DNA of 64,000 nucleotides, taken from contig NC_058504.1 in NCBI RefSeq assembly GCF_020382885.2, positions 13,341,019 to 13,405,018 of the forward strand. Direction: 5' to 3'. Below are positions 32,256 to 51,406 of the stretch, in pieces; the first letter of the stretch is position 1; each line of letters begins with the position of its first letter. Source of the stretch: Scatophagus argus (taxonomy: Eukaryota; Chordata; Actinopteri; Scatophagidae). The position numbers were made by a program, and so were the translations under genes. The notes beneath the pieces were generated by a model. That model worked only from the letters and a program-made list of their open reading frames with translations, made no database searches and was not told the DNA's origin.

Positions 32256-35200
32256 TCATAAGAAGTTCAGTTTCTCCGAAGTGTAAACACTGACGGATTC
32301 AGAGGTGTCCGTGTCTAGAGGCAGTGTGGAAAAGTATTCCTGTGATTCACTCCACCTTTCTTTGCTTCCATCTTTCTTGATCTGGAACTGAACGCAGTCC
32401 TCTGAGGAATGGAGGCAGTCTGAAGCCCCAGGCACTGAAAAGGACATCTTTCGTTCTCCCTCGTTAGATGTGACCTGCTATAAAGGAATGAAGAGATGTT
32501 TAGTAAATATTTTAATCTGTGACATACAAATACTCACAGCCTGAATATAGCATTACCTCAGTAGCCGAGTTATGACTGGGGGAGTCTGCAGCTGCTAATC
32601 TGTGAGCTCCCTGGTTTTGAGCTCTAGGAGTCCCTACCATAACTGGACTATAATTCTGGAATTACAAACAACACACATGAGCATATATGGGTAACGCACA
32701 TTAAAAAAACATTAAGCAAAGAAACAAAACTGGCTAACGTAGTGAGTTAATGAGCCTTACAGTATGAGCTGGACTGGCTCTTGGAGTCAATTTTCTTGGT
32801 GTTCCAGGCTGCTGAGAGTGACTGTAGAAGCCCGAGGGCTGAGGCCTGGGCTGGCTGTAGGCCTGCACAGACAAGCAGAGACACACAGACACACAAAATT
32901 CATGCAAACCACTTATAACGTAGTCACAGAGAATACAATGCTGGTTGTGAAAGTTAGACTTTGCAAGGACGTCGCAACATACGGCATACAAATGAGCGTT
33001 CGATTAAGAAAAAGGGAACAAAAAGGTTAATTTTTTTCATTGGTAATCTGTATGTATGTTTTAATTGTGTATCTGCAGCATTTTGGCAAAAACAAAGCCA
33101 CAGAGGGCTCAGTCTTCATTTAGGTGTATTTATAAAGGATTTTCAGTTGACATTCACTAAGAGGCATTCACCCTGGATGTGATTCATGTTGGATGCTCTG
33201 TGTTGCTTTTATGTTGTCATAAAAGTAAAGAACACAGCTTCCTTATAATACTCCCAGAGATCTTAAAAAATATCTTTTAGGTTTAATTCCAAAAGAAATT
33301 GTGAGAAAGTTTAAACTTGAGTCTCCCCAATATGACATATGGATTCAATATGTATGAAAACTTGAATAACATATAAAGTAAAAACTGTCATGTAATGGCC
33401 ATGTTAATGGCCTGTATTTGATTTATAACTAGATAAGTGTGGAAGCACCCAGAACTGCGTAGGATGGTGAATGGTGAGTTAAAAATAAGTAAAAAGCCAG
33501 TATTGGTGCTAATCAGCTCTTCCTGATTTCCTCACCTGAATGTTGACCCTCGGAGGGTTCGCTGGTGGTGTGCGGTCTGCTCTGAGACCAGGAATGATCT
33601 GTGAAAGGCTGCAGTTCGGGTATCGCTTCATGAACAGAATGAAACCAGCCAGTGACACAAACATGCCAGAAGGCACAGTGATTGACTTGAGAAGTGCTCG
33701 CCATCTGCCCCCCTTTTCTGTAGAGAAATAGGGGAGATATGAGGACAAATGGCGACTATGGGGATGCAATGAATTCCAATGCAAAAAAAAAAACGCCATT
33801 CAAACGCACGCTGTCACGCACCAATAACCTGCAACAAGGTGGAAGACACCAGGTTTCCATTCTCATCTCTGATTTCATATACCCCATCGTGCCTTGAGGT
33901 CAGGCTTGCAATGACAACCTCATTCATGGTGCTGTTCCTTCCTAGAGAGATGAGGCCTCTGTAGCGCAGGTCATGGTCCATTATCTGGCCTCCGCGGATC
34001 AACTGCACAGGATCATGGGGTGGCTTGGGGTCAAATGGATCCGGGGAGGATTTGTCAGGGTATCGGGATGGGGTAAAAGTGAGGTGTGTATGAGGGACAG
34101 GAAGAAAGAGGGGCAGGTTTAGAGACTCCTTGGTGAAGCGGGTAATATTGAAGGAGTGCCCTGGATCCACAAGCAGGATCATGAACACAGAGAGAGGAGC
34201 ACAGAATGAAAGGTATGTGGGGGCGTCAGACAGAAACGGAAACATAAAATATAAATGTTACAGTTGACAGGGTTGAAAAGTTAAGAGATTTATCAGTGAG
34301 CTTCTTAAAACCCATCCCGCTCACCACGGACTGTGAGGGTGCAGCGCGACACGACCTTCCCATTGCCGTCTCTCATAGTGTAGTTGCCCTGGTCGGCTTG
34401 CGTCACTCTCTCGGCCACCCAGAGCTTCCCAGCCCTCAGTAGCCGCCCCCGGCCAGCATTGCTGGTCTCAGGGTCCGTCCGGTTCCACAGCACAACAGGC
34501 ATGGCATCAGGTGGAGCACCCCTGGGAGAAAACTCCAGCAGGGAGCCGTTTCTGGGGATGCTGTGCTCAAAGTTCTCGCCATAGTTTCTGTGGTAGGACT
34601 TAATGCATTCTGCAGCAAGAGAAAGAGGAGGGATGGATAAAAGGGAGGCAGAGGGAATGATGTAAGCAAGTAAGGTAATTTATTGTTAAGTCTCATTCAA
34701 AAGTCAAAGAATTCTGAGAACCTAGAGCTGAGACTCCAAGGTCTCTGCTTACTAAAATGAACTTTTTCCTCACCACTTAAATCTAATTGTTCAAGGTCTA
34801 ACCATCCATCCATCCATTTTCTATACCACTTTGTCTGTGCAGGGTTGTGACCATTTTAAGCAGTTACGGCTTAATAAAAACCAATAGTTCCAAACACTTT
34901 TGGCTTATAGTCTGTTAAAGTGAAGTGTTGTCTCTGCTGATATCTATATGACATTACTTTTAGCATCACTATCCATCCATTTTCTATACCGCTTATCCAT
35001 TTGGGAGGAAGCAGGAAGTACCGTGAGTGAATGGTGAGTTAAAAACAAGTAAAAAGCCAGTATTGGTGCTAATCAGCTCACAGGGAGAACATGCAAACAC
35101 CACACAGAAGAGCCCAGACTGGGATTTGAACCACCATGCTGTCCTGTCTAATGATCCAGTGATTACCAAGACTACATGTGTGTAGCAGAAGTTTCATATT

Positions 35201-36629
35201 TAATATCTCTCATGCCATCAGAAGCATCTTGTGGTTAAAAGTAGCTCTATCTTAACCAGCTACAACCATAAAACGATGCATCAGTATCAACATTATATAT
35301 TCAAAATATAATAAGAATTATATGTAAAATACACGAGAGCCATTTTTCTGCAGAATGAATACTTTGACTTTTGAAACTTTCAGTACATTTTCCTTTGTAC
35401 TTGTATAAAGCAGATTTTGAATACTGGACTATGACTCAAATTGAGTATTTTTAAGTTAATATATAACAAATGAGTCAAGTGATGATTATGAACAAAACAG
35501 GGACGGATTTCCAAACAGAGAAAAGTTTTGTACCTGAAACAATCAAACGAACAGTCTCGTATGTGAATCCAGATGACAGCTTGATGGCATAAAGTCCCTG
35601 ATCGCCATGAGTCACTTCTCTCAGGACTAACATCTTGTCTCTGGTCCACTCAAACCGTGGGTCCTTTACCTAAAGTTTTAAAGCATATATGTTTGGGAAA
35701 TCTGTATTATGCAACAAAGAAACAAAAACTCAAGTGGCAACACACTTGCACTCACGTTTATTCCGTCCAGCAGGAGGCGCCTCGGTCCCTCAGAGTCTGG
35801 CGTGAAAGTCACCATTCTGGATGTGGAGTACACGGGCAGACGAAATTCCTTCCCAGCACACACCACATGGGCTTCATCTCTTTCACCTGTCAAAGCGGAA
35901 AGGGAAGTTAGAAACCTCTTCAGGTGAACCTCACCCAAATATCACTGAGGAAATTATGGCACCGCCTTCTAATAAAATTTACAAATAAATAACTAAAGCA
36001 GTTATAAGGGTCTATTCTTGGACTACTTTTATGTCCAATAATATATATATACATCAATTATATACAGAATAAATCACAATTTACAATGCTTTATTAATGA
36101 CTTTTATAATTCTATTTGCATTTATAATTGCACATGACTTACTAGCTTTGGCTAAAAACTGTAGGCCTACATCTTATCAAAACAGGGAAACCATTACTGG
36201 TTGCTGGTTTATCATCATCAATAATACATCATTACCACATAAAACCCAAAGGTTTTTTTTTTCCTAAACAGCCCCTAAACAAACAAGCAAAAAAATTTCT
36301 AATGCGCGTGTTTCCAAGAAAACAACTACAGCTGTCACATTAAAATGTTTAATATAGCACTTACTCCTTGTTCTTCAAATGATAAGTTTAACTGCTGGAC
36401 AAAGTATATGTGCACTTTAGATCATGTGTGATAAATATTGGACCAATGATTGGCTTCCAAACTATTTGTGATGTCAAAATCCATGCTTGCAGCAGCTTCT
36501 TGAAATCAGATTTTCAATGAGCACAGAGAAAATTGACACTTTCAGCAAACAATGTGTGGAAACATTCACCAACTTACCCACAGCAAGAGGAAGCGTGAAA
36601 AGGACAATGACGAAGACAGAGGAGGACAT
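32256..36629 (-). CDS. Ig-like transmembrane protein A (unnamed family)
   Basis: Not recognised as a named gene. Nine coding exons in phase: 36578-36629, 35756-35886, 35534-35669, 34325-34609, 33822-34160, 33536-33717, 32761-32862, 32557-32655 and 32256-32474; 514 aa. Signal peptide 1-17. Ig-like domain 1 (18-106) is split across two exons: CAGKEFRLPVYS, then VKDPRFEWTRDKMLVLREVT and GDQGLYAIKL. Domain 2 (107-201) has VVLWNRTDP and ADQGNYTMRDGNG. Domain 3 (202-314) has HDGVYEIRDENGNL. One membrane segment (about 322-342, SITVPSGMFVSLAGFILFMK) is followed by a 170-residue tail, Pro/Ser-rich, ending SVYTSEKLNFL. The F strands keep D-x-G-x-Y but lack the canonical cysteine. Five possible N-glycosylation sites are visible (NGS, NRT, NYT, NIT, NST). 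A leader exon ends at 37007. IgA is head-to-head with IgB, a paralogue with matching exon phases. Cell-surface location is inferred; the ligand is unknown. Confidence 0.88.
33468..33519 (+). repeat. 52-base source segment, copied at 35028-35079
   Basis: Intronic sequence starting TGAATGGTGAGTTAAAAA and ending TGGTGCTAATCAGCTC matches 35028-35079 at 51 of 52 positions, in the same orientation. Confidence 0.85.
34802..35160 (+). repeat. TCCATCCATTTTCTATACC-type repeat with internal insert
   Basis: TCCATCCATTTTCTATACCG at about 34973 and GAGAACATGCAAACACCACA, then GGGATTTGAACCACC, belong to a common fish interspersed repeat. The 120 bases before the TCCATCC motif (from GTTACGGCTTAATAAAAACC) also match 38290-38405. 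A 52-base unrelated segment interrupts the unit at 35028-35079. Confidence 0.6.
35300..35470 (+). repeat. Fragment of the TACTTTTACT-type repeat
   Basis: AATGAATACTTTGACTTTTG, CAGTACATTTTCCTTTGTAC and TTTTGAATACTGGACTATGA are worn pieces of the family described at 15175-15480. Confidence 0.35.
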
Positions 36630-37384
36630 CTTCTCCTGAGAGGACAGATCAGATTGTTTCATTAACAAAACACGGTGGACATGGACGCTCCTCTGAAATC
36701 AAGCCGCAGGACATGATCATGGTTGATCATGGATCAACAAGCCCCACCTCCGAGGGGGAACCTCAAAGACAACTGAGACGATGTTTCTGTAGAGCAATGC
36801 ATACTCCACACATCCAAACTGACCAGTATTGACACATTCTCACCAATGGTGCTCTGTCTGCTGTTTAGACTCACGTCCACGCAGGTATTCAATATGTTCC
36901 CCATGATGACCAACATTTATGGTGACATAGTGGACAATTAGGCCGTCAATAAGCACTGCGCTTACAAATGATCACACGACATGCGACGCATCTCGTCTGA
37001 ACTCACCTGCAGGATGTGTGTGGAAAATAAGTGCACCTCCGCTTAAATGTTTACAGGAATGAGGGTGGAAAAGGAGGATAACAACGTCCTCTGCAGTGGA
37101 GCGCGCATGTGCACTGGCTCCCTTCTTTATTTCTGAGGATGATGAGCTGTATTCTCAGCAGCTCCTGCGCAAGATGCGTCGCGTGTTGCTGTTGTTTTTG
37201 CAGGTTCTCGGCTATTAATACGCCACTAGCGCAAAAGGATTAAAGGTTAGAAAGATGCGTTGCTCCTGATGAGGGATGTGCCAAAATTAAAACTTGAAAT
37301 GTTACCAGGAACTTACAAGAACACGAGGATAGATCCTCTCTTATAGAGAAGATCTTTCTGCAGAGGAATTAGGCTTCTGAATTA

Positions 37385-37515
37385 CGCTACAGATTTGAGG
37401 TACTTGCACTTTACTTGAGTATTTTTTTTTCCATTCAGTGCTGACACTCCACATCATCACAGACGGGGAATATTGAACGTTTAACTCCACTATATTTATT
37501 TTACGATTAGAACTT
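37385..37515 (+). repeat. Fragment of the TACTTTTACT-type repeat
   Basis: GAGGTACTTGCACTTTACTT then GAGTATTTTT and AACTCCACTATATTTATTTT follow the usual order of this family. Confidence 0.45.
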
Positions 37516-38284
37516 TCAAACTAGGACTTTGCTACTGTCATCGATTAACCACGATTAAACGAACCATCGATTAAACTCTAAGAAACTTCTTCGGGCCGCG
37601 GAGCTCATTTGAGATGGTCTGACGCAAAGTGGGCAAACGTGCTGTGATGTGAGGAGTTCACATTTCAAATTGTGAATGATGGACGTTGTGTCTTCCAGGC
37701 TAAAGATGGACCATTCAGGACACAAAGTTTAACAGAACAGAGACCCTAGACTGTTCAGCTGCTTAAGTATCATATCGAGTAAAAATGGGGAGGAATTTCA
37801 CCTTCAAAGCTTCTGCCATTAGTGTCCTCAGTTCCCAAACACTAACTGAGTGTTGTTTAAAGAAAAGTTGATGTAACACAATGGTAAAACATGGCCCTGT
37901 GTTGCAGGCATCAAAGTCAGAATAAGAGTATATTTACATAAAAACAAGGTTGTTTGAAGTGTCATCAGTTTAAGCCATTTGTATTGACATTTTACGTTTT
38001 GGGGTTGTAAATGACAAAAGAAACAAAGAAAAAAAACTGCATAAAGAAGCTGACATGAGCCTTCTTGTAGAAATGATTTGTACTTGTGTTGTGTTGAGAA
38101 AGTAAAAGAAAAAAATGGTTTATTATTTAAAGTTGAAATATTGATGTTATAAGGATCTGAAAAACTAAAATGAAAAACACTTATAGCTTATACAAACATC
38201 TATAAAATAAACAGTATCCACAGATATGTTTTATTTTTGTTGTTGTTGTTGTTATTGTTTTTTTGTTTTTTTGTTGGCTATATG

Positions 38285-38560
38285 TCCAACAGTTATGGCC
38301 TAATAAAAACCAATGGTTCAAAACATTTTTGGCTTATAGTCCGCTTAAGTGAAGTATTGTCTCTACTGATGCCTATATGACATTACTTTTTGCATCATTA
38401 TCCATCCATCCATTTTCTATTAACCCCATGTGCATGTGTTGGGATTGTGGGAGGAAGCCGTAGGAGGCTCGCATGCACAGGAGGGAACATGCAAACTCCA
38501 CACAGAGGGGCCCAGACCGGGATTCGAACCTGGAACCACCTGCCGCATCATTATGAGCAG
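38285..38560 (+). repeat. Second copy of the 34802-35160 repeat
   Basis: GTTATGGCCTAATAAAAACC through TCCATCCATCCATTTTCTAT matches 34861-34988 at roughly 88 percent by eye. Then GGGAACATGCAAACTCCACA and GGGATTCGAACCTGGAACCA form the usual repeat end. This copy lacks the 52-base insert. Confidence 0.6.
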
Positions 38561-38943
38561 TTTAAACAAAGAGTGATTTTGTCTCTGAAAATCACTACAG
38601 TCCTATGTAGCCTTACAGAAACTCTCTTTTCTCTCTGTATCGTTTTAAATGTTAGACCGTATATGCGCAGTTTGCGCACATGTGGCGCAGTTATGACGTA
38701 CACAGAGGTTGAACGAAGCCTCGCCCAGTTTCACTTCTGTGCTGGAGCAGTGACAAACAACCTCCACATAAGAAGTGAACTATTTCGCGGTGAGTGAACA
38801 ATCTCATGTCTGTCGGTTTTCTTAACATGTGTATATTTTCATATGTTTCTTAAATTGCTCGATGATCAGTTTTGTCTGCTTTCAGTTCAGAGAAACGCTG
38901 TGAGCGTAATGACATGTTAAAAACCTCTCCGTCCCCACAGAAC

Positions 38944-41900
38944 ATGTTACTGTTGTTGTCCTGGCTTGTTTCCTTCTGCTTGTTCGGTGAGTATATAAAC
39001 AAAATCACAGAGGAAATTAAACCATTCAAGTTTTCTCACCTTTTCCTTTGTCTTTTTTCAGTTTTACTGTGAAAGTAGTCCTACTTTCTGCTGCACATAG
39101 CAACTCTGTTCACCTCGTTCAAATGCAAACCTGTATCGTAGCAACTTCAGTGTTAAGTAGCCAATGGTCACAATAGTTTCCATATTAACTGAATTGTGTT
39201 TTTTTGGGGGGGGGGGTCAGATAAAACTGAAAGAAAACAACAGCCACCACCGCCCCCTTCACTTCAGTTTCAACATTTCTACTTTTTGCAAACGTGTCTC
39301 ATTAAAAGAAACAAATTAGGAACTTAGCATTGAGTTAATCAGTTACACATTACTTGGTTTATGTTTTGCAGTCTGGCAATTTAATTAAATTGAACTCAAT
39401 AAAATTTAATGAAAGACACATCTAGGCTATTTAGTTGTACAGTATTCATTTATATACATCTTCGGTATGTGGGTGTTTGGTGAAAATAAGATCAGATAAG
39501 TTAAGCCAGGCCTTTATTAGACCCACACTGGGGAAATTCACATTGTCACAGATGCACAAGAATAGCAAAACAAACATGCAGGTAGGTCGAGTGAAAAAGA
39601 TGAAAAAATACAGTGATATTTACACCCTTATTAAAAGAAACTATCAAAAACACGCGACATACACACATGATATTTACAGTATCTCACAATTTTTACATTT
39701 TTAGCAGTGAACAAGTTACTGTATTGCACTAGGAGATGGGAGACTGTTGTACATTGATTTATGACAAACATCTTAAAGAAAACATACAACATTCGAACAT
39801 GTCATGGTAGGAAAATCACAGGTGTAAATAAATAATAATTATTGATGACTGAATTTCTTAGGTAGGGTCATTGGCATATTTCTAAAAATGTTGCTTTAAT
39901 TGTACAAATTTTGGATGATCCAGAAATGCATCATGTGAGATAGTGACTATATTAACTAAATGGGGCCCTCGTTGATTATTTTGAGGGCATGGGAACAAAA
40001 GGACCATAGAGAAATATTTGTTTGTATGTGCAGCTATTATTACATTCGCAAAACAATTCTTCATATGTCGTAGCAAATGTATTGAATTTGATTACAGTAT
40101 GCTTTTCGCATGGTCAGATGTTTTGTGTCTAATTTAATTTAATATTCCTGCCCTCTATCTCTTCTTTAATTGTATCTTTCTGATTGAAGGTTCGTCTGTA
40201 GGTGCGGCTTTTGAAGAGATATGCTATGGCAGAGATTTTAGATTACCATATGATTATACACCACCATTGTACAATGGAAAGCTGTACTTCACTCCAAGTA
40301 AGGGGGGACCCAGGAAGCTAATGATGGATAATGGGGAGGTGAGCAGCCCTTGGTGCTATAATTTGTAATGTCACCAGTATCGCTATGCTATGGTATCCAA
40401 GCAAGATCTGAAATATGGCAAACATCTTCCTTCTGTTTAAGCTAGAGCAAACCAGGTTTGAATGTATCAACTCTGTCCCGAGTACGTGTATTTGTGTTGC
40501 TCCCCTGTTCAGGCAAAGGATCCACGCATGAAAGTTTCCTACAGCACAGTTCGTCTCAAAGATTTGAGGGAAAGCGATGATGGAACTTTTTCTGTCATGT
40601 TCGGCACAAGAATGTATGATTTCCTCAAACTGAAAATTCTGGGTGAGAACATTACACTATATTGTATGTTTAATGGCTCTATTCCCTCAGGTAACATTTG
40701 TGTAAATAGATATTTATAGTAATTACTGACGTGCAGTCTTACTAAATACAATAAGTCCACCCTTTTTTCTGGATGTACTTTTTCAGATTGTGCCGAAGAG
40801 GTCACAAGGTATTACGGGCATTTGTACTCCTATTCCGTTCCTAGAGAGGCTGAATTTCTGGAGTTCATTCCTCTTCACTCTGTGGACCAGCTAATGGTCC
40901 TGTGGAATCTCACTGACTCTCAGACTAATAAGGGAGCCAGACGACAGATGAAGCGCAATTCCTGGGAGATTAGCGGCGTCACTCAGGCAGACGCTGGCTA
41001 CTACAACTTAAGGAAAAAGGACAACACTTTGCTGTCTAGGGTACTTCTCAGAGTAGAAGGTAAGGTGTGGAACTTGGTAGAAGCTGCATGGCTATCTGAT
41101 TAAATGTTTTTATGCAATCTTCTCTTTATCACACACAGAGAGCAGACGACACTATGATACAAAGGTAAACACGAGGCTCTTCATCCAAAAGCCATTTGTT
41201 GATGTCCCATGGACTGTCACTTTTACCCGTGAGGGGGAAACAGAGCAGATACCACTGATGAAAGACGGCAAACCTTTCAAGGAAAGTTCCTGGAACCTGG
41301 AAGCGTCTTTTAGAAGGAGAATTTCGTTCTTACATGATAGCATCGAAATTGCTCCTGTGCAAATCAGAGACTCTGGCACCTTTGAGTTCAGAGACCCTCA
41401 AGGCAACCTGGCTGAGTCTGCGGAGGTGTTGGTAGAGCCAGGTAAGATTTTAATCTGAGGGGCAGGGTCTGTATGATCAGTTACTGGTGATTCAAACAAA
41501 CCAACAATCCTTCTTCTTCTGCTTTTTACAGAATTTACTCCTACATGGGTTTATGCTGCTATTTCTGGCGGGATTATCTTTGCTGTGATTTTCTGCTGTT
41601 GTTGTATCAGAAAGTGTTGTTGTGGAAAGAGCTCCTCTAAAAGAGACGAATCCGCAGCTGCTGTGTATCACCATGTAAGTACTTTGTCAAGTGGGCATTC
41701 AAATCAACTGTTTACAGTATGTGTTGCTATTTTTACTTCAGTATCTTCATTTCAATTGCAGGATGAGAATCGACCCACAGGTCCCACAAGTTATTCTGCT
41801 GCGCTTGCTTCGCATTATTCCTATCGGCCAGTGAATTCCCTTGCTTCTAGAGAACCTGCAACTGCCTCCCTTGGGCCACCGGTAGGTGCTATTTAAAGGT

Positions 41901-44165
41901 TTTTAAACCGTGAAAGGAGTTTTAGGGTTGGCATGGAAAGGGAGAAATGTAAGGCAAATATTCTGTGTCAAGGGAAAGTTACGTGCATGCTGATGCACGC
42001 TGACTGCTCATGGAGGCAGTTAGGGCACTGTGAAAGTGTTAACACAAGACATATATGCCCACATGTTTTTGAAACAGGTTTTGCTTGCTGTAGTCATGCT
42101 TCCTGTTTGTACTGGTCTTGAAGAGGTCCATTCTTTTGTTAAGATTATTTGGGGACGGAGCATTTTTGCATTAATTGGACAGTTTTGACAGCTAATACAC
42201 AGACTAGAAACATGGGGATATAGAAAGTGGCATGATGTGCAACCAGCAGTTCAACTCTTAAAGTAATTATGCACCATTCTATGTGCAGTCATTCATGACC
42301 TTGGCGTTAAGGACTTACCACCCAAGAAGATTCACGGGTCATGGTGGTAACACTTCTTACAGCAGGGGTTCCTGAACTTTTTCTGCAAGGGCCCCCCTTT
42401 TATAGATAAGAATATTTTCCAGCTCATTGAAACTACATCAATAGCATAAGGAAGTATTATGTGTTTCTCCAAGTGTTGTCTCAAATTGTCAGAAGCTAGT
42501 CTTTTTAGATACACAACACATTGTGGTCTGTTCATGCAGTTATCCACATTTAACTCTAAATGATTAAGATGTCAGCTTGCGGAGTCCCTAAACTCCTTCA
42601 GCCTGATGAGCAGCAGATTCAGCATACCAATCCTGGCATTTCCGTGGCCAATGGCAAGAGATTTCTCCAGCACTTTTTAACCATCGATGAGACTTGAATC
42701 CACCACTTCCAGCCAGAGATGGAAGAACAATTGAAACAGTGGAAACAAAGACTCTTGCTGCAAAGAAAGTGAAATCAGTGACGGCCACAGGTTGACTCCG
42801 TCTTCTGGGATGCAAAGAAGTGCTGGGGCTTACTTCTGATGTCTTGAGAAAGCTACGGGAGAAAATGGAAGATTCAGTAGACAGAAGGTTTTTTCCACCA
42901 GAAAAACATTCCAGCCCACAAGTCAACAGTGATAATGGCTACCATCCAGGAATACGGCTTCAATCCTGTTCAGCACCCACCCTGTTTACCTGATGTGGCA
43001 TTCAGAATCTACTGCCTCTTCCCCAAGATGAAGAAGGAGCTCAGCACTTGCCATTTTGACATTGATGAAGACATGATAGTTGCTGTGGACCACTTTCTGC
43101 AGGTTCAAGATCCCAACTAAGGAACTAATCTGTGTGTCAATGTAGGAAGGGACTATGTTGACAAATAAATGTGCTTCAAAAGTTTTCTAAATTTGATTTC
43201 AGCCATGAACTTATTAATCAACTTGATTATCAGTCAGTCAATCAGCCAGCTCATTCTGAACTGACTGCTGAAGCCTCAAATTTGATTCAATTTTTGAATG
43301 AACAAAGATTGTGGGTCTTGGCTACCATATCACTTTAATTCAATTGTGTTAAGACTGGCTCTCTTGATGGCGAGTATGAGCAGAAGGAATACAAATAAAA
43401 CCTGTTTCTTAGTTAGTATGGGCACTCGACTATTGTTTAAAGACAGCCCTAAAATAGTTTGAATACTTTAACACGGATATCTTGTAAAACCATCTGGGTA
43501 AAACACAATAAAAGACAGAAAGCATAAAAAAGGCATACAGATAAACAAAAAAAAAAACAACAGGAAAACATAAAAGTTGTCTTAACATTAAAATTTAAGT
43601 GAAAGTGAAATTCCGATAGAATTGTTTTCAAAAGGGTTTTAAAAGAGATTACTGACTCAGCCAACCTGATCTCCTTGAGCATATCGTTCCAGGCTATACA
43701 GATTGTACCTATTGCTTACCTGTTCGTGGCACTGTGGGTGAGTGGGGGGTCCTTTTTCCAGCACTGACCCACATGCATTTTTTTTTACCTTACAGGTGTA
43801 TAATCCAGTAAATATCCACGTGAACCCCACTCAGCCCGAGGTACATACACAAACATACAGAATTCCCTCTTAACACATAACATGTAGGGGCATGAAAGCC
43901 TACTGGCATAAATCTGACAGGCTCTTTTCACACACTGAACTTACTAACACAGTTTCATCAACACACACGCCACTTCTCTTTGCAGGTTGCAGCTCCAGGA
44001 GGGCAGGGAGTCACTCCAGCACCTTCAGGCAGCTTTGATCTTTCCTCCTCGGACCCTGATCCCAGGTTTGAGCTGAAAGGACTGGCCTTTCCCTCTGCTC
44101 CCCCTCTCAGTTCTGACTCAACATTCTGTGATGTTTATAGTTCTGATAAACTCAACTTTCTGTAA
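38944..44165 (+). CDS. Ig-like transmembrane protein B (unnamed family)
   Basis: Paralogue of IgA. Nine coding exons in phase: 38944-38986, 40190-40338, 40513-40642, 40787-41059, 41139-41441, 41532-41674, 41762-41881, 43796-43840 and 43986-44165; 461 aa. Signal MLLLLSWLVSFCLFG. Domain 1 (15-107) is split as in IgA: CYGRDFRLPYDYT, then GGPRKLMMDNGE and AKDPRMKVSYSTVRLKD. Domain 2 (108-198): MVLWNLTDS and ADAGYYNLRKKDN. Domain 3 (199-299): RDSGTFEFRDPQGNL. F-strand cysteines are again missing. The membrane segment WVYAAISGGIIFAVIF runs straight into CCCCIRKCCCGK, a likely palmitoylation cluster. The tail has a 45-base exon (VYNPVNIHVNPTQPE) and ends FELKGLAFPSAPPLSSDS, then VYSSDKLNFL. The intron at 41882-43795 holds a mariner fragment. 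The exon 2 acceptor could instead be 12 bases downstream. Confidence 0.88.
39480..39720 (+). repeat. Dispersed repeat in IgB intron 1
   Basis: GCCTTTATTAGACCCACACT then GGGGAAATTCACATTGTCAC is a very common teleost repeat head (ACTTTATT..CCCAC..TGGGGAAATT). The exact class is not assigned. Confidence 0.5.
42571..43170 (+). mobile_element. Mariner-type transposase fragment (DNA transposon), decayed
   Basis: The + strand reads VSACGVPKLLQPDEQQ, FLQHFLTIDET and IHHFQPEMEEQLKQWKQ, then FFHQKNIPAHKSTVIMATIQ, EYGFNPVQHPPCLPD, FPKMKKELSTCHF and VNVGRDYVDK. These match the C-terminal two thirds of mariner transposases (FLTVDECWVHHFEPE, NAPAHKS, HPPYSPDLAPSDYHLFP). The first catalytic Asp survives in TIDET. 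The Asp of the D-N-A-P-A-H block reads Asn (KNIPAHKS), and the third catalytic position lies in the decayed SPDLAPSDY block (CLPDVAFRIY). Stops follow TIDET and interrupt the middle. No flanking terminal repeats could be identified. It sits in an IgB intron, same strand. Confidence 0.8.
43440..43690 (+). repeat. Dispersed fish repeat in IgB intron
   Basis: AAAGGGTTTTAAAAGAGATT then ACTGACTCAGCCAACCTGAT and CTCCTTGAGCATATCGTTCC resemble a common teleost unit that reads CAGCCTGATCTCCTTGGGCAG..GTTCCAGAG. The class is not assigned. Confidence 0.45.
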
Positions 44166-46224
44166 AGGACACACTGAAAATATATGCAGAGTTAAATTCA
44201 AAATGATGCTTTGTGACCTGCAGGAACACAGCTGTATCAGTCCTTTATTGGACTGTGGGACATACGCACAATGAACATCAGTTGAAGATAAGGAGATAGG
44301 GATCATTTAGACCATAAGAAACAAGATATCATTCACATATGACCACACTCACCATAAGTTAATGTGTGGGATATCCTCTTTCTTTTGATATAAATACACC
44401 CACATAGTTTGAGGTCTGTACAGTATTAATAGTTTTATCAATTACTCAACTGGAGTCAAACTTAAGTCAACATTCAAGCCACTATTACCAGCTTTATACT
44501 TTACACTATATTTGTAACTTTACACTTATACAGTAAGTATAAGTAATGGATATTCTTTTTATAACATTGTTTCAAATACTCATATATCATGTGCCTTCAT
44601 CCTCTCTGTGTGACTTATCAGTGCATTTTGATAAATTATATGGAATGTTTTGATTTCGGTACGTGGACTCTGTTACATTTTGTGTCTTTTTGTTTATGTT
44701 TGTAGAGTTTGCTTATGCCAGAGTTTCTATCCAAAAGCTCTTCTGGTCATTTGGAAGTGAAATTAGTAGAATATAGTGATATTTGATACAAATGTTTGTC
44801 TTTCTTTTGACTTTGACATTTAGTATTAATTTGGCTATTAATCATATTAGATTATTTCCTTTCTTCCTGTTCGCAGTTTGAAGCAAATTGTTCTCAGTGA
44901 TGAAGTCTTGCTACACAAAACCAGCACTGACCGAACTGATGTAATGTTCTCAGCCCTCTGGGGCCCCTGTGTTTGAAAAAACACTGCAAAAGTGCTGTCT
45001 AGGATGCCTCTTAGGTAGACAATATGTGATAATGGGCTGTAATAAGTGTAATAATACTGGAAAATGATTTTAATCTAAACCAGAGTTTGTAACTGTTTCA
45101 ATGTGCAAATCAATGCAAGTCATTGGTAAAACCATATAAGATATTAAACTTATATATTTAACCACTTTCGTTTGAATCCATGCAGTAGTTGAAACATTCA
45201 CTCAAATGTGCAAATTCAACTTCCCGATTTTGTTTATAGGATCAGGAAGTTAGAATTCATTGTTTGGAGACTTTCAGTCTTGTGGTAATCTGTCCTGTGG
45301 TTGCTGACATATTTCATTTTGGCTCACAAGTGACCAAATCATTGACTGCACATGAAGATGGACAACATGAGAGCGCCTCAAAAGTGAAGCCAAAATTTCT
45401 CGATCGCCCCCTGGTGTCAGTCTCCAGTGTAGGTCATAAACCCTGCCACTTCTATGTTAACAGACTAGAACTAAAAACTCAAAGTACACGTCAAATACTT
45501 TTTTTTCTAACGATGGTTTCTGCCACTTTATGTACTCTGATGTACGTTCAATTATTATGTTTTTCTTATAAATTTGATCTTAATTGGTTATTTGAGATTA
45601 TCACGAAAAGGAGACCAGGGACGCCATGATTGACATTGAGCTGCATGAGCTGTGTGGACGCTGCTCGCGATTGGTCCGTCCGATCACTACCAGGTCACCA
45701 CTAGGTCAGGTACAACTGCGCATGCGTGAGCGAATGACCTCAGCAGCGCAAGATGGCAGCACTCATATCCGAGACATTTTGGCTTCAGTATTGTGAAAAG
45801 AATATAGAGAATTTGTACAACAAATAAAAATAAAATAAACAACAAATAAAAAAAGAAAGATTCGCCTCAAGGATGTGTTCTCATAAGATTTGCTTGCTAG
45901 GGATGTGACCTTATCATACCATATGAGGCTAACGGATGTTCGAAAGAAAAGCATTTCCCACAGCTCCTAAACGTCTCACGACTACCTCCATAGAAACGCC
46001 CTTTTGGGTGGGCCCAGACGAAGCTCACTATCCGTCCGTGTGTAATTAATTAGAGTACATGCAGTACGCACTGTTTGCACTGTACAACGTATGTATATTG
46101 AAGTGTCATTCGTGAAGTGTTGACAAACTGATAAACTTAACATATCTTACAGTGCGCTTAACTGGTCGACCACGCTTTACGCTGGACACGGGTTTAACGT
46201 TAATGTCTGCAGTCACAACAGAAG
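44166..46224. other. IgB 3' UTR and IgB-IgC intergenic region
   Basis: AT-rich sequence follows the IgB stop. ATTAAA at about 45143 is a weak polyadenylation candidate. A dispersed repeat fills 45335-45800. The IgC promoter should lie shortly before 46225. The open frame at 45264-45629 lies largely in the repeat and is not a gene. Confidence 0.45.
45335..45800 (+). repeat. Dispersed repeat carrying NRF1- and YY1-like motifs
   Basis: Reads CACATGAAGATGGACAACAT, AAAGTGAAGCCAAAATTTCT, CGATCGCCCCCTGGTG, CGCCATGATTGACATTGAGC and TGCGCATGCGTGAGCG, then GCGCAAGATGGCAGCACTCA. A second copy of its right end is at 47628-47725, so the unit is dispersed. It contains an NRF1-like GCGCATGCG (about 45716) and a YY1-like CAAGATGGC (about 45750). 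Confidence 0.6.
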
Positions 46225-49200
46225 ATGATTGTGTTGCTGTTGCTGGCTTTCTGTTTTTCTGAGGGTAAGTAAAATGATGAGTCTGTTTTTTAAGACTGTC
46301 GTGTTTCATTAAGCCTCATCGGTAAGTAGGCTGTTGAACGGTATATCAGGTATCTAGAGGGAGTGGGAGGTTTACGTATGTAATGGAGGAGGACATGTAG
46401 GTAGATGGTGTGAGGGAAGAGGATACAGAGGACAGGGCGGGTTGGAAGCCAATGATTCGCTGTGGCGACTCCCGAAAAGAACAGGAAAAGAAGGAAGATG
46501 GGAGTCTAGTAGTCTTCTTCACTGAAGTACAACAGTGAGGCGTTAAATGTTTCCCGTTTGTGCTACTTTACAATACTAGACTACATTTCAGAGGAAAATG
46601 TTAGCTATGGTTACTAGTTGTACTTGTAAAGTTTGTCATGTCTTTGCACAAATGTGGTTATTATGTTGCACATTTTAATCGTTTGTGTACAGAGGTTATA
46701 TGATAAATTTCTGTCCCGAGTAAACGTTGTGAAAAGGGTCATTTTACATACTGTACACTTTAAGTACATTTAGCTTTTACTCTAGCAGTATTTTTATTAC
46801 TGGACTACAACATTTTGTTTTCATCAAGTTAAAGATCTGAACACTTTCTCTATCACTGTACGGGATCATGAGCATCTGCAATACCATTAAAGTTTAGTTA
46901 GTACATGCTGTATAATATGATTTCAATATGCTGATATATGTGCCCCCATTTAAATTATTCCAAGGTTATTACTTGTTCACAGTTATGTTAAAACACATAA
47001 GTATTTTCAAGTAATTTAGTATAAAATGATGGTTTTCAAAGATGTCTGGTAATGCTGACATACCTTTTTTTTTAAACTTTCTGTCTAGGTCTCTCATATG
47101 ATAATAACTACTATGGAGGCACATTCAGAATAATCATGCACAAAAGGGCTCAATCCATCGAGTTCACTTCAAGGCGCAGCTCAGAAGTGAAGATTTTGTG
47201 GAAACGTGATGACCCTCCAGCCAGCGAGGACAGTAGGCGGAGGGTGATATATGGCCATTTTGTAATTAGTAACCTAACCCAGCAAGACAGTGGCCGCTAC
47301 ATAATGAGAGACAAGGATAAACTACCATTGTATGTCAAGACCATTGAGGTTAGAGGTGAGTCTATATAAACCACTTCTGTAGCATAATCCACTTTCATAA
47401 TCCACTGTTGCTTAGCCGTATGTTCGCTCTTTGTTAGAACTTTTTGGAATATGTGAGAATATAATGAAAACTCCACAACAGTTCTACATTTGGATTTTTG
47501 CTGAGAGTTAGATGAAAATGATCTACACAGTGCATATGAGGATAGAGGAGATAGCTTATCACAAAGAAAATGGGGAAACAGCTAGCTTGTCTGAAGGTAA
47601 CAAAATCTGATACCAAACAGTGTCACCAGTGCAAGATGGCAGTGCTCGTATCCGGGATGTTTTGACTTCACTTGTGTACGGCAGAAGGAAGTCTAGACGT
47701 GTTGTCCATCTTTGTATATCTCTATGTGCCCAACTAGAATAGTCCCTTCCAGTAGCTTTATATTCACCATACAAACATGACTGCAGTATCAATCTTCTCA
47801 TCTCACTCTCAGCAAGAAAACAAATAACCACGTTTCCGAAAAGTTTGGATTTCTTGTTGGACGTTCTTTTCAGTTAATGACAGCTGTGATGCTATGTGAA
47901 AGATAAAACTAGAAATTTAAAAAACCAAGACTACGCTTAATAAGTGTTTGGTACTCCAGATATGTTGAGTGGAGATGCCCTCTGATATCCTCTGTCTTGT
48001 TCGTTTTCTCTTTCAGCAAAGGAGGAGGTTTATGTTCTGACAGAAGGTGAACGCTTCAGTATCAGTTTTTATCTGGAACCACAGTTCTGCAACATTTACT
48101 TCTTCTCATACATTAACCATGGATTGGTAGAGACTAAGATTGTGCTTGATGGCCGGCTGGTGGACAGTATGTCTCAGTGCTCAGGGATTCGTCTGTTAAA
48201 GCCTTGTGGGATTTTAAATGAGGACCTCGAAATGCCATGCAGAGGGCGCTATGAGATCAGAGATTCAAATGGCAACAATGCCTTAATGGTGACATTGGAA
48301 ATGGAGCGTAAGTAACCTGTACGTTTATCAGTATCAGATGGTGGTTTCAAAGGCGATGTACGGTTTTCTCAACCAAACAGAGATCACTCAGTTATAAAAT
48401 CTAATGTTTGACACATTAGCAGACTTTTTCCACTGTACTTATATGCTGTCTACAAACTGGTAATGGGTCTGCTACTCATTATTATTTCAGACAACTTTTC
48501 TATAATTTTCATAAAATTGTGAAACTCACACTCAAAGTTTTTAAATCCTAGGCTGAAATGACTTAATCAGTTATCAAAATTGTCCATTGACTAATGGCTT
48601 CTTTGTTGCAGGACTGGATTCTGATACTTCTGCTAGTGGTGTTGGCATTGGTCTGTTCACCATCATCTTTCCCTGCTGCTGTACCTGCTTGTGGCACTGC
48701 TGCTGTCATAGGGGCTCCTCCAAAAAGGGCCAATCTGAAACCCCTGATGGTGATCAAGAGGTGAGTACATTCTGCATTAAAGTTACCTGAAACTTTTGCG
48801 TGTGTCTGTAATAGTGTAAAGTTAAAAGTCCTGGTGTTCAGACTGTGTTTCTGTTTCATTCAATATGCGTTATGACCATAAGCCTGTTGGACAGAGACCA
48901 GAACAACACAGTCCTCTTCCCCCTGCCACACGCAACCCAACTCAGCCCCCTCATACTCCAACTGGCCCACTGGTTAGTATGTGTTTTACAGGGAGAACTT
49001 CTCTTGCTTTGTTTATTCTCTTTCCTCTCCACCTCTGATGTGTTATGCGTCGCTTCACTCTGCAGATACACCCTCCTCCTGCTATGGACACGCCGCCAGC
49101 ATATTCTGAGGTAAGACCTGTCGTCCGTGTCCATCTAAGCATGCGCGAACCCATGCGTGGTCACAGGTACATACTCATATTAGTGCATCTATTTACAGAG

Positions 49201-51406
49201 CAAACTGGGATTTCTTAGCTCTCCGGTGTTTGTGATAGTCACCGTTTTTCCACATTAAAGGTCTAACAGCCATGTTGGATCCGTTCCTTTCCACAAAGAC
49301 AGTTTTTCTTTGAAGTTTTAAGTCGAGTCAGTCGAGTTAAAATTACTTTGAAAAATTACTTTTAAAAAAATGATTTAAAAAGAGGCCAGGGAGCAGCAGC
49401 AGCCAAAAAACATGCCAGCGTTCACTCAACCAGAACCGGATACTCAGTCACAGTGCTGAAGTACGGTTTGGTACGGAGAGCCACATCAAGAACTTCTCTT
49501 GCTTTGCTTATTCTCTTTCCTCTCCACCACTGATGTGTTATGTGTCGCTTCACTCTGCAGATACACCCTCCTCCTCCTATGGACACGCCGCCAGCATATT
49601 CTGAGGTAAGACCTGCCGCCCCTGTGAGCATGCGCGAACCCATGCGTGGTCACAGATACATACTCATATCTGATTAATGAAAGTGCATCTTACAGAGCAA
49701 ACTGGGATTTCTTAGCTCTCCGGTGTTTGTGATAGTCACCGTTTTTCCACATTAAGGGTCTAACAGACATGTTGGATCCGTTCCTTTCCACAAAGACAAT
49801 TTTTCTTTGACGTTTTAAGCCAAATCAATTCAAGTGTTTTTTTTGTGCTGTCTGCAGTAACAGTGAACGGTGTAACAAGGCAGCGTCTCTTTCCTCTTAT
49901 TCTCTTTCTTCTCCATCTCTGATGTGTTATGTGTCGTTTCACTCTGCAGATACACCCTCCTCCTGCTATGAACACGCCGCCAGCATATTCTGAGGTAAGA
50001 CCTGCCGTCCGTGTGAGTCTGAGCAGGCGCCGAACCCATGCGTGGTCACACATACTCTAATTCTATAGATCTGAATTCACTAGAATTTAAATACATCTAT
50101 AATAATGTACGGCGTGCAAACCGACTCAAGACTATACATAATGCACAAGGACTGTGCAGACTATATACACAGCACAGAGACTATACAAGTCTATACATAC
50201 TGCACAAAAACTATAGATGCAACAACGAGGAGCGGCAGCAACCAGGGCATGGTCTTGCTATGAAATGTTTGAGACGGCCATAAAATGCAGGTAGGGACAG
50301 TATTGTATACAGTGTCAACAGTGTAAAGTGCAGGTAGAACAGTTGCTGTAAACATTACGAGGTATAAGCTGACAATGTGCATGTTGTATTGTGTAGTGAA
50401 CTCAATCCAGCCTCTGAGAATTGAGGAGTCTTATGGCTTGGCGGGAAGAAGCAGTTGCACAGCCTGGTTGTAAGAGCCTAAATGTTTCGGTATCTTTTCC
50501 CAGACGGCAGAAGAGTGAACCTTCATTGTTCTCTTGTTTTCTAGTCAGTGGTCTTCCCTGCTCTGTTTTTTTCAGTCAGAGGAATTTGATGTGCACAAGC
50601 TGGGAGCATAAAAATATTTCTTGCATGCAATATAAATGTGTTATTTCTTATTCTAAAAAATGGTATATTTGAATATTTCTGCATACTTGGCTCTCTAAAC
50701 AGTTCTTGAATTGCATGTATGAGTATGACTGGAAATCTGAGACTCTTGTGAATTAAGTGAGCTGAACTGTATTCATGTATGATGTTAGTCTCTGTAGTAT
50801 GGCCCTTTTATTGTTTTTTTGAAATGTTAAGTCACTGTAAAAAGGACATAATTTGACCTGTGTGAAATTATATTTATGGACAAATGGGAGAAATTCAGGT
50901 CAAACTGGGAATGAGACTCAACTATCACCTGTTTTTTTCCTCCCTCCTCCCCTTCTTGAAGTACCTTCCCCCTCCAGTCAGAAGTGGTGGTCGTCTTAAT
51001 TGATAAATCACTGTATTTTGTTTGTTATGTTTATATATGCCCTGTCCTAAATGTTATACTAATGATATCGAAGTGTTTCATGCTGTGTGTATCAGACTGA
51101 TTGGTGGAAGCTAAATGAATATTCTCTGTGTAAAACCACAGAAGCTAACATCTGTATTTTAGACCAAATTCAGGTTCAATATTTTATCAGTCCGGGAGTG
51201 TTCGGGAGTGCAGTGCTTGTGACACTTTTTTTTCTCTCCAGGTTTCAGCTCAAACAGAGGATCCGGACCCTCCAGCTGTCCCTGTCGACTCTGACCCCGA
51301 GGTGCGGTTTGAACTGCAGGGGATGGCCTTTCCCTCTGCTCCCCTACTCAGTTCAGACTCAGGTTGCAGTGACGTTTATACCTCAGATAAACTCAACTTC
51401 CTCTGA
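46225..51406 (+). CDS. Ig-like transmembrane protein C (unnamed family)
   Basis: Third paralogue. Nine coding exons in phase: 46225-46264, 47089-47355, 48017-48307, 48612-48760, 48883-48972, 49066-49110, 49561-49605, 49950-49994 and 51242-51406; 378 aa. Signal MIVLLLLAFCFSEG. Only two Ig-like domains remain. The first (14-102: YYGGTFRIIMHKRAQSIEF, then VKILWKRDD and QDSGRYIMRDKDKL) aligns with domain 2 of IgA and IgB. The second (103-199, ending GRYEIRDSNGNN) aligns with domain 3. The split domain 1 is absent. Membrane segment GVGIGLFTIIF runs into PCCCTCLWHCCCHRG, a cysteine cluster. The tail has a Pro-rich exon (EQHSPLPPATRNPTQPP), three near-identical 45-base exons (IHPPPAMDTPPAYSE), and the shared end FELQGMAFPSAPLLSSDS, then DVYTSDKLNFL. 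The acceptor of the Pro-rich exon (CATAAG at 48882) is weak but is the one that keeps phase. Function unknown. Confidence 0.85.
46745..46862 (+). repeat. Fragment of the TACTTTTACT-type repeat
   Basis: TGTACACTTTAAGTACATTT then AGCTTTTACTC and AAGATCTGAACACTTTCTCT ATCACTG match the right end of the family described at 15175-15480. Confidence 0.45.
47628..47870 (+). repeat. Right end of the 45335-45800 repeat joined to a second repeat
   Basis: GTGCAAGATGGCAGTGCTCG then TATCCGGGATGTTTTGACTT matches 45748-45790. From about 47740, CAGTATCAATCTTCTCATCT then CACTCTCAGCAAGAAAACAA matches the right part of the 26785-27145 family. Confidence 0.55.
48999..50055 (+). repeat. Three tandem copies of a 45-base exon with flanking intron
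   Basis: Each unit contains a TATTCTCTTTCCTCTCCACC-like pyrimidine tract, TGATGTGTTATG, CACTCTGCAG, the 45-base exon and GTAAGACCTG. Units 1 and 2 also share a right flank (GCAAACTGGGATTTCTTAGC, GATAGTCACCGTTTTTCCAC). Exon starts are 49066, 49561 and 49950, so spacing is 495 then 389 bases. Exons differ at only a few bases, for example AMD, PMD and AMN in the middle. Confidence 0.9.
50060..50520 (+). repeat. Dispersed fish repeat in IgC intron
   Basis: ACTATACATAATGCACAAGG, AAAGTGCAGGTAGAACAG and TTATGGCTTGGCGGGAAGAA, then CCCAGACGGCAGAAGAGTGA, follow a common teleost unit (GATGGCCTGGTGGGAAGAAGC..CAGACGGCAGCAGAGTGAA). The class is not assigned. Confidence 0.5.

What the first reader, a model, noticed from the sequence alone, without database searches (positions are those of the whole stretch)
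32256..51406. Three-gene cluster of Ig-like receptors that lack the F-strand cysteine
IgA, IgB and IgC share exon phases, Ig-like domains, one membrane segment and a related tail. All eight domains keep a D-x-G-x-Y/F turn (GDQGLYAIK, ADQGNYTMRD, ADAGYYNLR, RDSGTFEFRD, HDGVYEIRD, QDSGRYIMRD and others). The residue two after Tyr is hydrophobic or charged, never Cys, so the usual B-F disulfide cannot form. Many then read R-D-x-x-G/D. This looks like a coherent family with a derived fold, not random loss. I know no named receptor with this set of features.
Basis: partly seen in the sequence, partly recalled or inferred. Interest (0 to 1): 0.85.

Follow-up and report, generated by a model that had tools for sequence, protein, structure and literature searches.

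The report
Immunoglobulin receptors lacking the core disulfide
Three neighbouring genes, probably from a bony fish, encode cell-surface receptors built only from immunoglobulin-like domains that have lost the usual internal disulfide bond and its partner tryptophan, and two relatives elsewhere in the genome suggest that this is an uncharacterised receptor family and not decay.

Summary
Three spliceable genes (IgA 515 aa, minus strand; IgB 461 aa; IgC 378 aa) carry eight mutually related Ig-like domains. The C-strand Trp is also gone (Phe in 7, Tyr in 1). Replacements are hydrophobic or aromatic throughout, so the whole Cys-Trp-Cys core was rebuilt. Two further genes on contigs C9 and C17 carry six more such domains: 0 of 14 have core Cys or Trp. 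The "derived fold" is not supported: one domain is predicted confidently (pLDDT 87.8) as an ordinary V-type sandwich, with CD2 as first Foldseek row. Disulfide-free V domains are known in CD2 and CD58, but beside domains that keep the disulfide. In D2 of IgA, C9 and C17 two Cys sit at the A-strand start and in the G strand, suggesting a replacement A-G disulfide (not measured). Tails carry tyrosine motifs: TNYSPV (IgA), PPVYNPV (IgB), three exon-duplicated PPAYSE (IgC). I read it as an uncharacterised adhesion/signalling receptor family, a new variant of a known kind. Ligand, expression and orthologues are untested.

The parts
36578..36629 (-). IgA exon 1, signal peptide
35756..35886 (-). IgA exon 2, first half of domain D1 (Cys in HVVC)
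35534..35669 (-). IgA exon 3, second half of D1 (GDQGLYAIK)
34325..34609 (-). IgA exon 4, domain D2 (ECIKSY...RCTLTV Cys pair; modelled, pLDDT 87.8)
33822..34160 (-). IgA exon 5, domain D3 (no Cys)
33536..33717 (-). IgA exon 6, membrane segment
32761..32862 (-). IgA exon 7, cytoplasmic tail
32557..32655 (-). IgA exon 8, tail; with the end of exon 7 gives TNYSPV (ITSM consensus TxYxxV)
32256..32477 (-). IgA exon 9, C-terminal tail LPLDTDTSESVSVYTSEKLNFL
38944..38986 (+). IgB exon 1, signal peptide
40190..40338 (+). IgB exon 2, first half of D1 (Cys in EEIC); an alternative acceptor 12 bases later is possible
40513..40642 (+). IgB exon 3, second half of D1
40787..41059 (+). IgB exon 4, domain D2 (DCAEE; no G-strand Cys)
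41139..41441 (+). IgB exon 5, domain D3 (no Cys)
   Evidence: model poor
41532..41674 (+). IgB exon 6, membrane segment
41762..41881 (+). IgB exon 7, tail, ends GPP
43796..43840 (+). IgB exon 8 (45 nt), with exon 7 gives PPVYNPV (PPxY)
43986..44165 (+). IgB exon 9, C-terminal tail FPSAPPLSSDSTFCDVYSSDKLNFL
46225..46264 (+). IgC exon 1, signal peptide (short; below the 19-mer cut-off)
47089..47355 (+). IgC exon 2, domain 1 (D2-type in the domain tree; no Cys)
48017..48307 (+). IgC exon 3, domain 2 (four Cys at non-core places)
48612..48760 (+). IgC exon 4, membrane segment
48883..48972 (+). IgC exon 5, proline-rich tail (acceptor CATAAG looks weak)
49066..49110 (+). IgC exon 6, 45-nt PPAY exon, copy 1
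49561..49605 (+). IgC exon 7, 45-nt PPAY exon, copy 2
49950..49994 (+). IgC exon 8, 45-nt PPAY exon, copy 3
51242..51406 (+). IgC exon 9, C-terminal tail FPSAPLLSSDSGCSDVYTSDKLNFL

Best explanation
The three genes are tandem members of one family of type I membrane receptors whose ectodomain is a string of two or three V-like Ig domains. Shown: in all of these domains the Cys-Trp-Cys core is replaced by hydrophobic or aromatic residues. Shown: the same state is found in two genes on other contigs that score as relatives. Predicted: IgA D2 folds as a normal V-type sandwich. Inferred: the core is held by packing and, in D2 of IgA, C9 and C17, by a substitute disulfide between the A-strand start and the G strand. 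Inferred: the receptor binds a partner on another cell through a V-domain face, as CD2 and CD58 do, and signals through a tail whose tyrosines sit in ITSM-like (IgA) or PPxY (IgB, IgC) motifs. In IgC each PPAYSE[I/V] could bind WW-domain proteins (NEDD4-type ligases, for example) when unphosphorylated and Src-type SH2 domains when phosphorylated; exon triplication raises its valency.
For: Gene models and phases. Relatedness of the eight domains. Core positions 0 of 14 Cys at B, 0 of 14 Cys at F, 0 of 14 Trp at C. AF2 of IgA D2 with 6 of the 8 domains as alignment: pLDDT 87.8, pTM 0.78, eight strands. First Foldseek row 1hng (CD2), E 4.5e-5; 8 of the 50 rows shown are CD2-family entries: 1hng, 1t6w (titled a calcium-binding adhesion design; CD2-based by recall), 2ptv, 1qa9_B, 2ptt_B, 2edo, 2ptu_C, 2ptu_B. 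Relatives on C9 and C17: with the eight-domain profile their six domains score 17.2-35.3 bits, against at most 12.7, 12.1 and 9.2 bits per domain at three loci with Cys-bearing Ig domains (L021, L070, L072). Cys pair at D2 start and G strand in IgA, C9, C17. Tail motifs. dN/dS: IgB/IgC tail dN 0.145, dS 0.904 over 37 codons; C9/C17 D1 0.52/1.99 and membrane segment 0.33/1.11. Zebrafish Cd2/Cd58 IgV domains lack the disulfide (PMC5990624, passages).
Against: No transcript or protein data. The A-G disulfide rests on Cys placement; no model distance was measured, and IgB D2 and IgC lack the pair. The D3 model is poor (B3 pLDDT 67; 0 PDB matches at E <= 0.001). Foldseek rows differ little in E (4.5e-5 to 3.8e-4 over 50 rows, most of them antibody or TCR V domains), so CD2 is not singled out. 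Sequence profiles match generic Ig proteins best (VEGFR, Robo, contactin, pIgR, CEACAM1), and the 60 of 178 rows shown hold no CD2-family entry. The C9 and C17 loci came up in only one of the four searches with window proteins, at E 0.015 and 0.048 (not in 52, 57, 59), and the reverse searches reach IgA D2 only at E 0.007 and 0.65. The profile also gives ordinary Ig loci low whole-ORF E-values (3e-6 for L021, about 1e-5 for L070 and L072 with the 14-domain profile). Tail likeness between the cluster and C9/C17 is weak: best E 0.08, and the C17 tail finds only itself in the genome. Single ITSM-like and short PPxY matches can occur by chance. Two of five dN/dS comparisons gave saturated dS.
Confidence: 0.6

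Rival explanations
1. They are divergent members of the CD2/SLAM family: the V domain of CD2 multiplied, with the C2 domain lost or turned into a V-like one.
For: First Foldseek row is CD2; 8 of 50 rows shown CD2-family. V domain without disulfide is a feature of fish Cd2 and Cd58. IgA has one TxYxxV.
Against: No domain keeps a B-F disulfide and the C-strand Trp is replaced in 14 of 14; IgB and IgC have no TxYxxV/I; no CD2-family entry among the 60 of 178 profile rows shown.
Confidence: 0.2
2. They derive from CEACAM-like or other IgSF adhesion genes whose N-terminal V domain lacks the disulfide.
For: CEACAM1 and CEACAM6 chains among the profile rows; CEACAM15 D1 at Foldseek rank 27; locus L072 of this genome (C9:18077779) encodes a Cys-less V domain followed by a Cys-bearing Ig domain, CEACAM-like by recall, and came up as a weak hit (E 1.28; 14-domain profile E 1.4e-5).
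Against: L072 keeps Trp (VIWNF) and has an ordinary second domain, and scores only 8.9-9.2 bits per domain with the eight-domain profile.
Confidence: 0.12
3. The cluster is decaying: pseudogenes that lost cysteines by drift.
For: The domains are divergent (18-28% identity to IgA D1); IgC exon 5 has a weak-looking acceptor.
Against: Full open frames with GT-AG at all 24 introns, hydrophobic or aromatic replacement at every core place, dN/dS 0.16 in the IgB/IgC tail, same state on C9 and C17.
Confidence: 0.04

Closest known systems
CD2/CD58/CD48/CD244 V domains
   Same: V-type sandwich with no B-F disulfide (Cd2, Cd58: PMC5990624 passages); among the best Foldseek rows for IgA D2
   Different: There one V domain precedes a C2 domain with disulfide; here 2-3 V-like domains, none with it, and C-strand Trp replaced; that CD2-family V domains keep this Trp is recalled
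CEACAM N domain (recalled) and the CEACAM-like locus L072 of this genome
   Same: Cys-less V domain
   Different: Trp kept and a Cys-bearing Ig domain follows (L072)
Disulfide-free domains in receptor tyrosine kinases and titin (VEGFR D4, KIT D4, titin; recalled)
   Same: Single Ig domains that lost the disulfide; VEGFR or titin heads each profile list
   Different: Here every domain read in five genes is affected
Fish NITR receptors
   Different: NITR V domains keep core cysteines (recalled)

Membership tests
Immunoglobulin superfamily (V-type fold) | V-type beta-sandwich | tested here: met
   IgA D2 model pLDDT 87.8; 216 PDB matches at E <= 0.001, the 50 shown being Ig domains by title or recall. 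Tested on 1 of 8 domains; the B3 model is too poor.
Immunoglobulin superfamily (V-type fold) | Curated Pfam Ig model above its cut-off | tested here: not met
   0 of 3 proteins reach a gathering score; best Ig model I-set, E 0.02; 14 domains singly, best I-set 0.0025.
CD2/SLAM family | V domain without B-F disulfide | tested here: met
   0 of 8 window domains, 0 of 14 in all, with core Cys; feature of Cd2/Cd58 from PMC5990624 passages.
CD2/SLAM family | Membrane-proximal C2 domain with B-F disulfide | tested here: not met
   No domain read in the five genes has Cys at either core place.
CD2/SLAM family | ITSM (TxYxxV/I) in the tail (SLAM members; recalled) | tested here: inconclusive
   One in IgA (TNYSPV), none in IgB or IgC.
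CD2/SLAM family | Closest structural neighbours are CD2-family domains | tested here: inconclusive
   First Foldseek row and 8 of 50 rows; VIA rows shown are tied within 1 Z and cannot exclude a family.
CD2/SLAM family | Clustering with CD2/SLAM in a tree | not tested
   No vertebrate proteomes on hand.
CEACAM family | Cys-less V domain followed by Cys-bearing C2 domains (recalled) | tested here: not met
   No domain with core Cys; contrast locus L072.
NITR | V domain with core cysteines (recalled) | tested here: not met

The most novel reading that the evidence does not exclude
A distinct family of vertebrate receptors in which the entire Cys-Trp-Cys pin that marks Ig domains was given up in every domain and replaced by a packed core plus an A-to-G disulfide in the middle domain, coupled to a tail with duplicated PPxY/YxxI motifs acting as a WW/SH2 phospho-switch.
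Probability: 0.3. Interest if true: 0.7.

Novelty: new variant of a known kind. Interest (0 to 1): 0.5.

Why it matters
The B-F disulfide and the C-strand Trp are textbook marks of the Ig fold, and none of the three proteins reaches a Pfam Ig cut-off. A family of at least five genes that dropped all three residues in every domain, yet shows signs of purifying selection, would show how far the Ig core can be rebuilt, and would mean that Ig receptors of this kind are easily missed by annotation. The tail of IgC, with exon-triplicated PPAYSE motifs, also offers a testable link between a surface receptor and WW-domain (ubiquitin ligase) or SH2 signalling.

Tried and rejected
Rejected: a new fold (IgA D2 is an ordinary V sandwich); hidden exons restoring the cysteines (no further Ig-like ORF in the window); further members within 10 kb on either side of the window (best weak E 5.6 on the 3' side; 0.18 on the 5' side). 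Weak genome hits: 14 loci were scanned with the 14-domain profile at E <= 0.05; 11 gave nothing (L010, L020, L022, L034, L036, L037, L039, L040, L041, L042, L059), and 3 gave ordinary or other Ig domains: L070 (FGFR-like by recall, Cys-bearing), L021 (titin-like by recall, Cys-bearing) and L072 (CEACAM-like by recall). L010 and L022 had weak ORFs (E 0.076-0.78). Because the profile gave L021, L070 and L072 E-values near 1e-5 to 1e-6, I ran a control on one common set of 1269 sequences: C9 and C17 domains 17.2-35.3 bits, those three loci at most 12.7 bits per domain. The control loci are few and were picked because they had surfaced as weak hits. Genome searches have limited reach (the IgB D3-plus-tail query found the IgC tail but neither its Ig domains nor IgA), so five genes is a lower bound.

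CD2-family rows do not appear among the 50 VIA rows shown or the 60 profile rows shown in each; absence there does not exclude kinship. Literature: ten searches gave, in the listings, no paper describing this cluster; most were narrow. A zebrafish locus name that I recalled (dkeyp-77h1.4) is listed as unknown or uncharacterised in two papers (PMC7918649, PMC5418189; passages); nothing links it to these genes, so I dropped it. PMC7720500 was seen as outline and passages and gave no link. PMC11969063 passages gave CD2/CD58 topology only. PMC5990624 was seen as passages only: it says first that the IgV domains have no disulfide and the Cd2 IgC2 domain has two, and later, against itself, speaks of the B-F and A-G bonds in the 'IgV-like domain'; I read the later sentence as meaning the IgC2 domain.


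Full report
What is there. The window is G000:C12:13341019-13405018 of a 570.7-Mb, 48-contig genome; that it is a bony fish is my inference from the gene content, not a tool result. With splice sites placed by hand, GT-AG at all 24 introns, they give full open frames: IgA (minus, 515 aa), IgB (plus, 461 aa) and IgC (plus, 378 aa), nine exons each. Ig exons are phase 1-1; D1 of IgA and of IgB is split by a phase-0 intron at a matching place. Each protein has one membrane-length segment after the Ig domains. Neighbours are PRPF19 (U-box PF04564, ORF 30477-30713; Prp19 PF08606, below its cut-off, ORF 29811-30095, both minus; the gene name is by recall) on one side and a BRI3BP-family gene (PF14965, ORF 55343-55717, minus), probably TMEM109 by recalled human gene order, on the other. 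PRPF19 and TMEM109 are adjacent in human by recall, so the cluster would lie inside an old neighbour pair.

Is the cysteine claim right? Yes, and it goes further. At the F-strand Cys place the eight domains have I V M L M I F I; at the B-strand Cys place V Y I V M L L F; at the C-strand Trp place F F F F F F F Y (order A1 B1 A2 B2 C1 A3 B3 C2). The columns come from an alignment at low identity (18-28% to A1); the model of IgA D2 supports the strand assignment for that domain (B 13-16, C 21-28, C' 38-42, F 74-80, G 85-93). So both cysteines and the tryptophan were exchanged for hydrophobic or aromatic residues in all eight. With 29.8% I/L/V/M/F in these domains, eight of eight at one place has a chance of about 6e-5 if residues were drawn at random; this is only indicative, since the domains are related.

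Is it a family? Leave-one-out profiles recover each of the eight domains above 2000 shuffles. Four searches of the window's genome with IgA, IgB and IgC proteins found the cluster; one of them, with IgA, also gave C9:17517262 and C17:2935817 at E 0.015 and 0.048. The eight-domain profile finds three exons in each at E 7e-8 to 5e-4, and 20 kb of each locus reads as a gene with three Ig-like domains, a membrane segment and a long tail. The profile also likes ordinary Ig domains (L021 at E 3e-6), so I ran a control on one common set: the six C9/C17 domains score 17.2-35.3 bits, while the best single domain scores 12.7 at L021, 12.1 at the FGFR-like L070 and 9.2 at the CEACAM-like L072. C9 and C17 are each other's closest kin (51-53% in D2, 43% in D1, 62-65% in the membrane exon), perhaps whole-genome-duplication copies (inference). 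Their six domains have no Cys at B or F and no Trp at C, bringing the count to 0 of 14. In the domain tree the D2 domains of IgA, IgB, C9, C17 and the first domain of IgC form one group (85/89, not starred); 2 of 11 inner branches are starred and C2, B3 and C1 are long branches. I read this as one three-domain ancestor, with D1 lost in IgC (inference).

Where did the disulfide go? D2 of IgA, C9 and C17 has Cys as its second residue and another in the G strand (RCTLTV, VCLNV, NCLNV). In C9 and C17 these are the only Cys in the three domains as read (exon ends partly approximate), so they most likely bond to each other; A and G strands are neighbours in V domains (established knowledge). No distance was measured. 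IgB D2 keeps only the first, and IgA and IgB have a Cys before the B strand of D1 that may instead bond near the D1-D2 junction (inference). IgC domain 2 has four Cys at other places. [quoted passage not shown] so such a bond has a precedent.

Tails. IgB and IgC share 28 of 37 C-terminal residues with dN 0.145 and dS 0.904. By eye all five genes share an F-x-[ST]...L-[SD]-[ST]-D-[ST] stretch (alignment), but between the cluster and C9/C17 this is not significant (best E 0.08 with lax settings; the C17 tail finds only itself in the genome). The three cluster genes end in Y-[ST]-S-[DE]-K-L-N-F-L. IgA reads TNYSPV at an exon junction, IgB PPVYNPV, IgC PPAYSEI, PPAYSEI, PPAYSEV. The three PPAY exons lie in tandem 137-nt repeats, 95% and 86% identical to the first, so they arose by exon duplication, probably recent. 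PPxY is a WW-domain ligand and pYxxI/V can bind SH2 domains (recalled), so a switch is plausible but untested. One ITSM-like match in one gene is weak evidence.

Known or new? What I could not match to anything known is their use in every domain of a receptor, the joint loss of Trp, and the A-G cysteines in a V-like D2. The same genome offers a contrast: L072 encodes a Cys-less V domain that keeps Trp, with a Cys-bearing Ig domain after it. Without vertebrate proteomes I cannot say whether other databases already name this family; the ten paper searches listed under Tried and rejected showed no description.

Verdict. Real genes, real and coherent loss of the Ig core residues, ordinary fold where it could be tested, uncharacterised receptor family as far as these tools show: a new variant of a known kind.

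Noticed in passing
window 48994-50014: Three tandem copies of a 137-nt unit (spacing 495 and 389), each with one 45-nt PPAY exon: exon triplication in IgC.
   Followed up: yes
C9:17515380-17520718 and C17:2934929-2945262 (L043-L046): Two three-domain genes with the same Cys-less domains and long tails; the C9 tail end is proline-rich.
   Followed up: partly
window 42560-43120: Intron of IgB holds ORF pieces that read to me like a Tc1/mariner transposase remnant (recall); Pfam gave no hit to the one piece tested.
   Followed up: partly
window 29811-30713 and 55343-55717: PRPF19 and a BRI3BP-family gene (probably TMEM109 by recalled order) flank the Ig cluster; these are neighbours in human by recall.
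   Followed up: partly
window 20733-21624: V-type ATPase 116-kDa subunit gene, minus strand (PF01496).
   Followed up: no
window 59488-59772: RING-finger exon, minus strand (PF00097), reading like RNF20/RNF40 (recalled).
   Followed up: no
L072 (C9:18077779): CEACAM-like gene (recalled likeness): Cys-less V domain that keeps Trp, then an ordinary Ig domain.
   Followed up: partly
window 48017-48307: IgC domain 2 has four Cys at unusual places (25, 55, 64, 75 of the domain), possibly one or two new disulfides.
   Followed up: no
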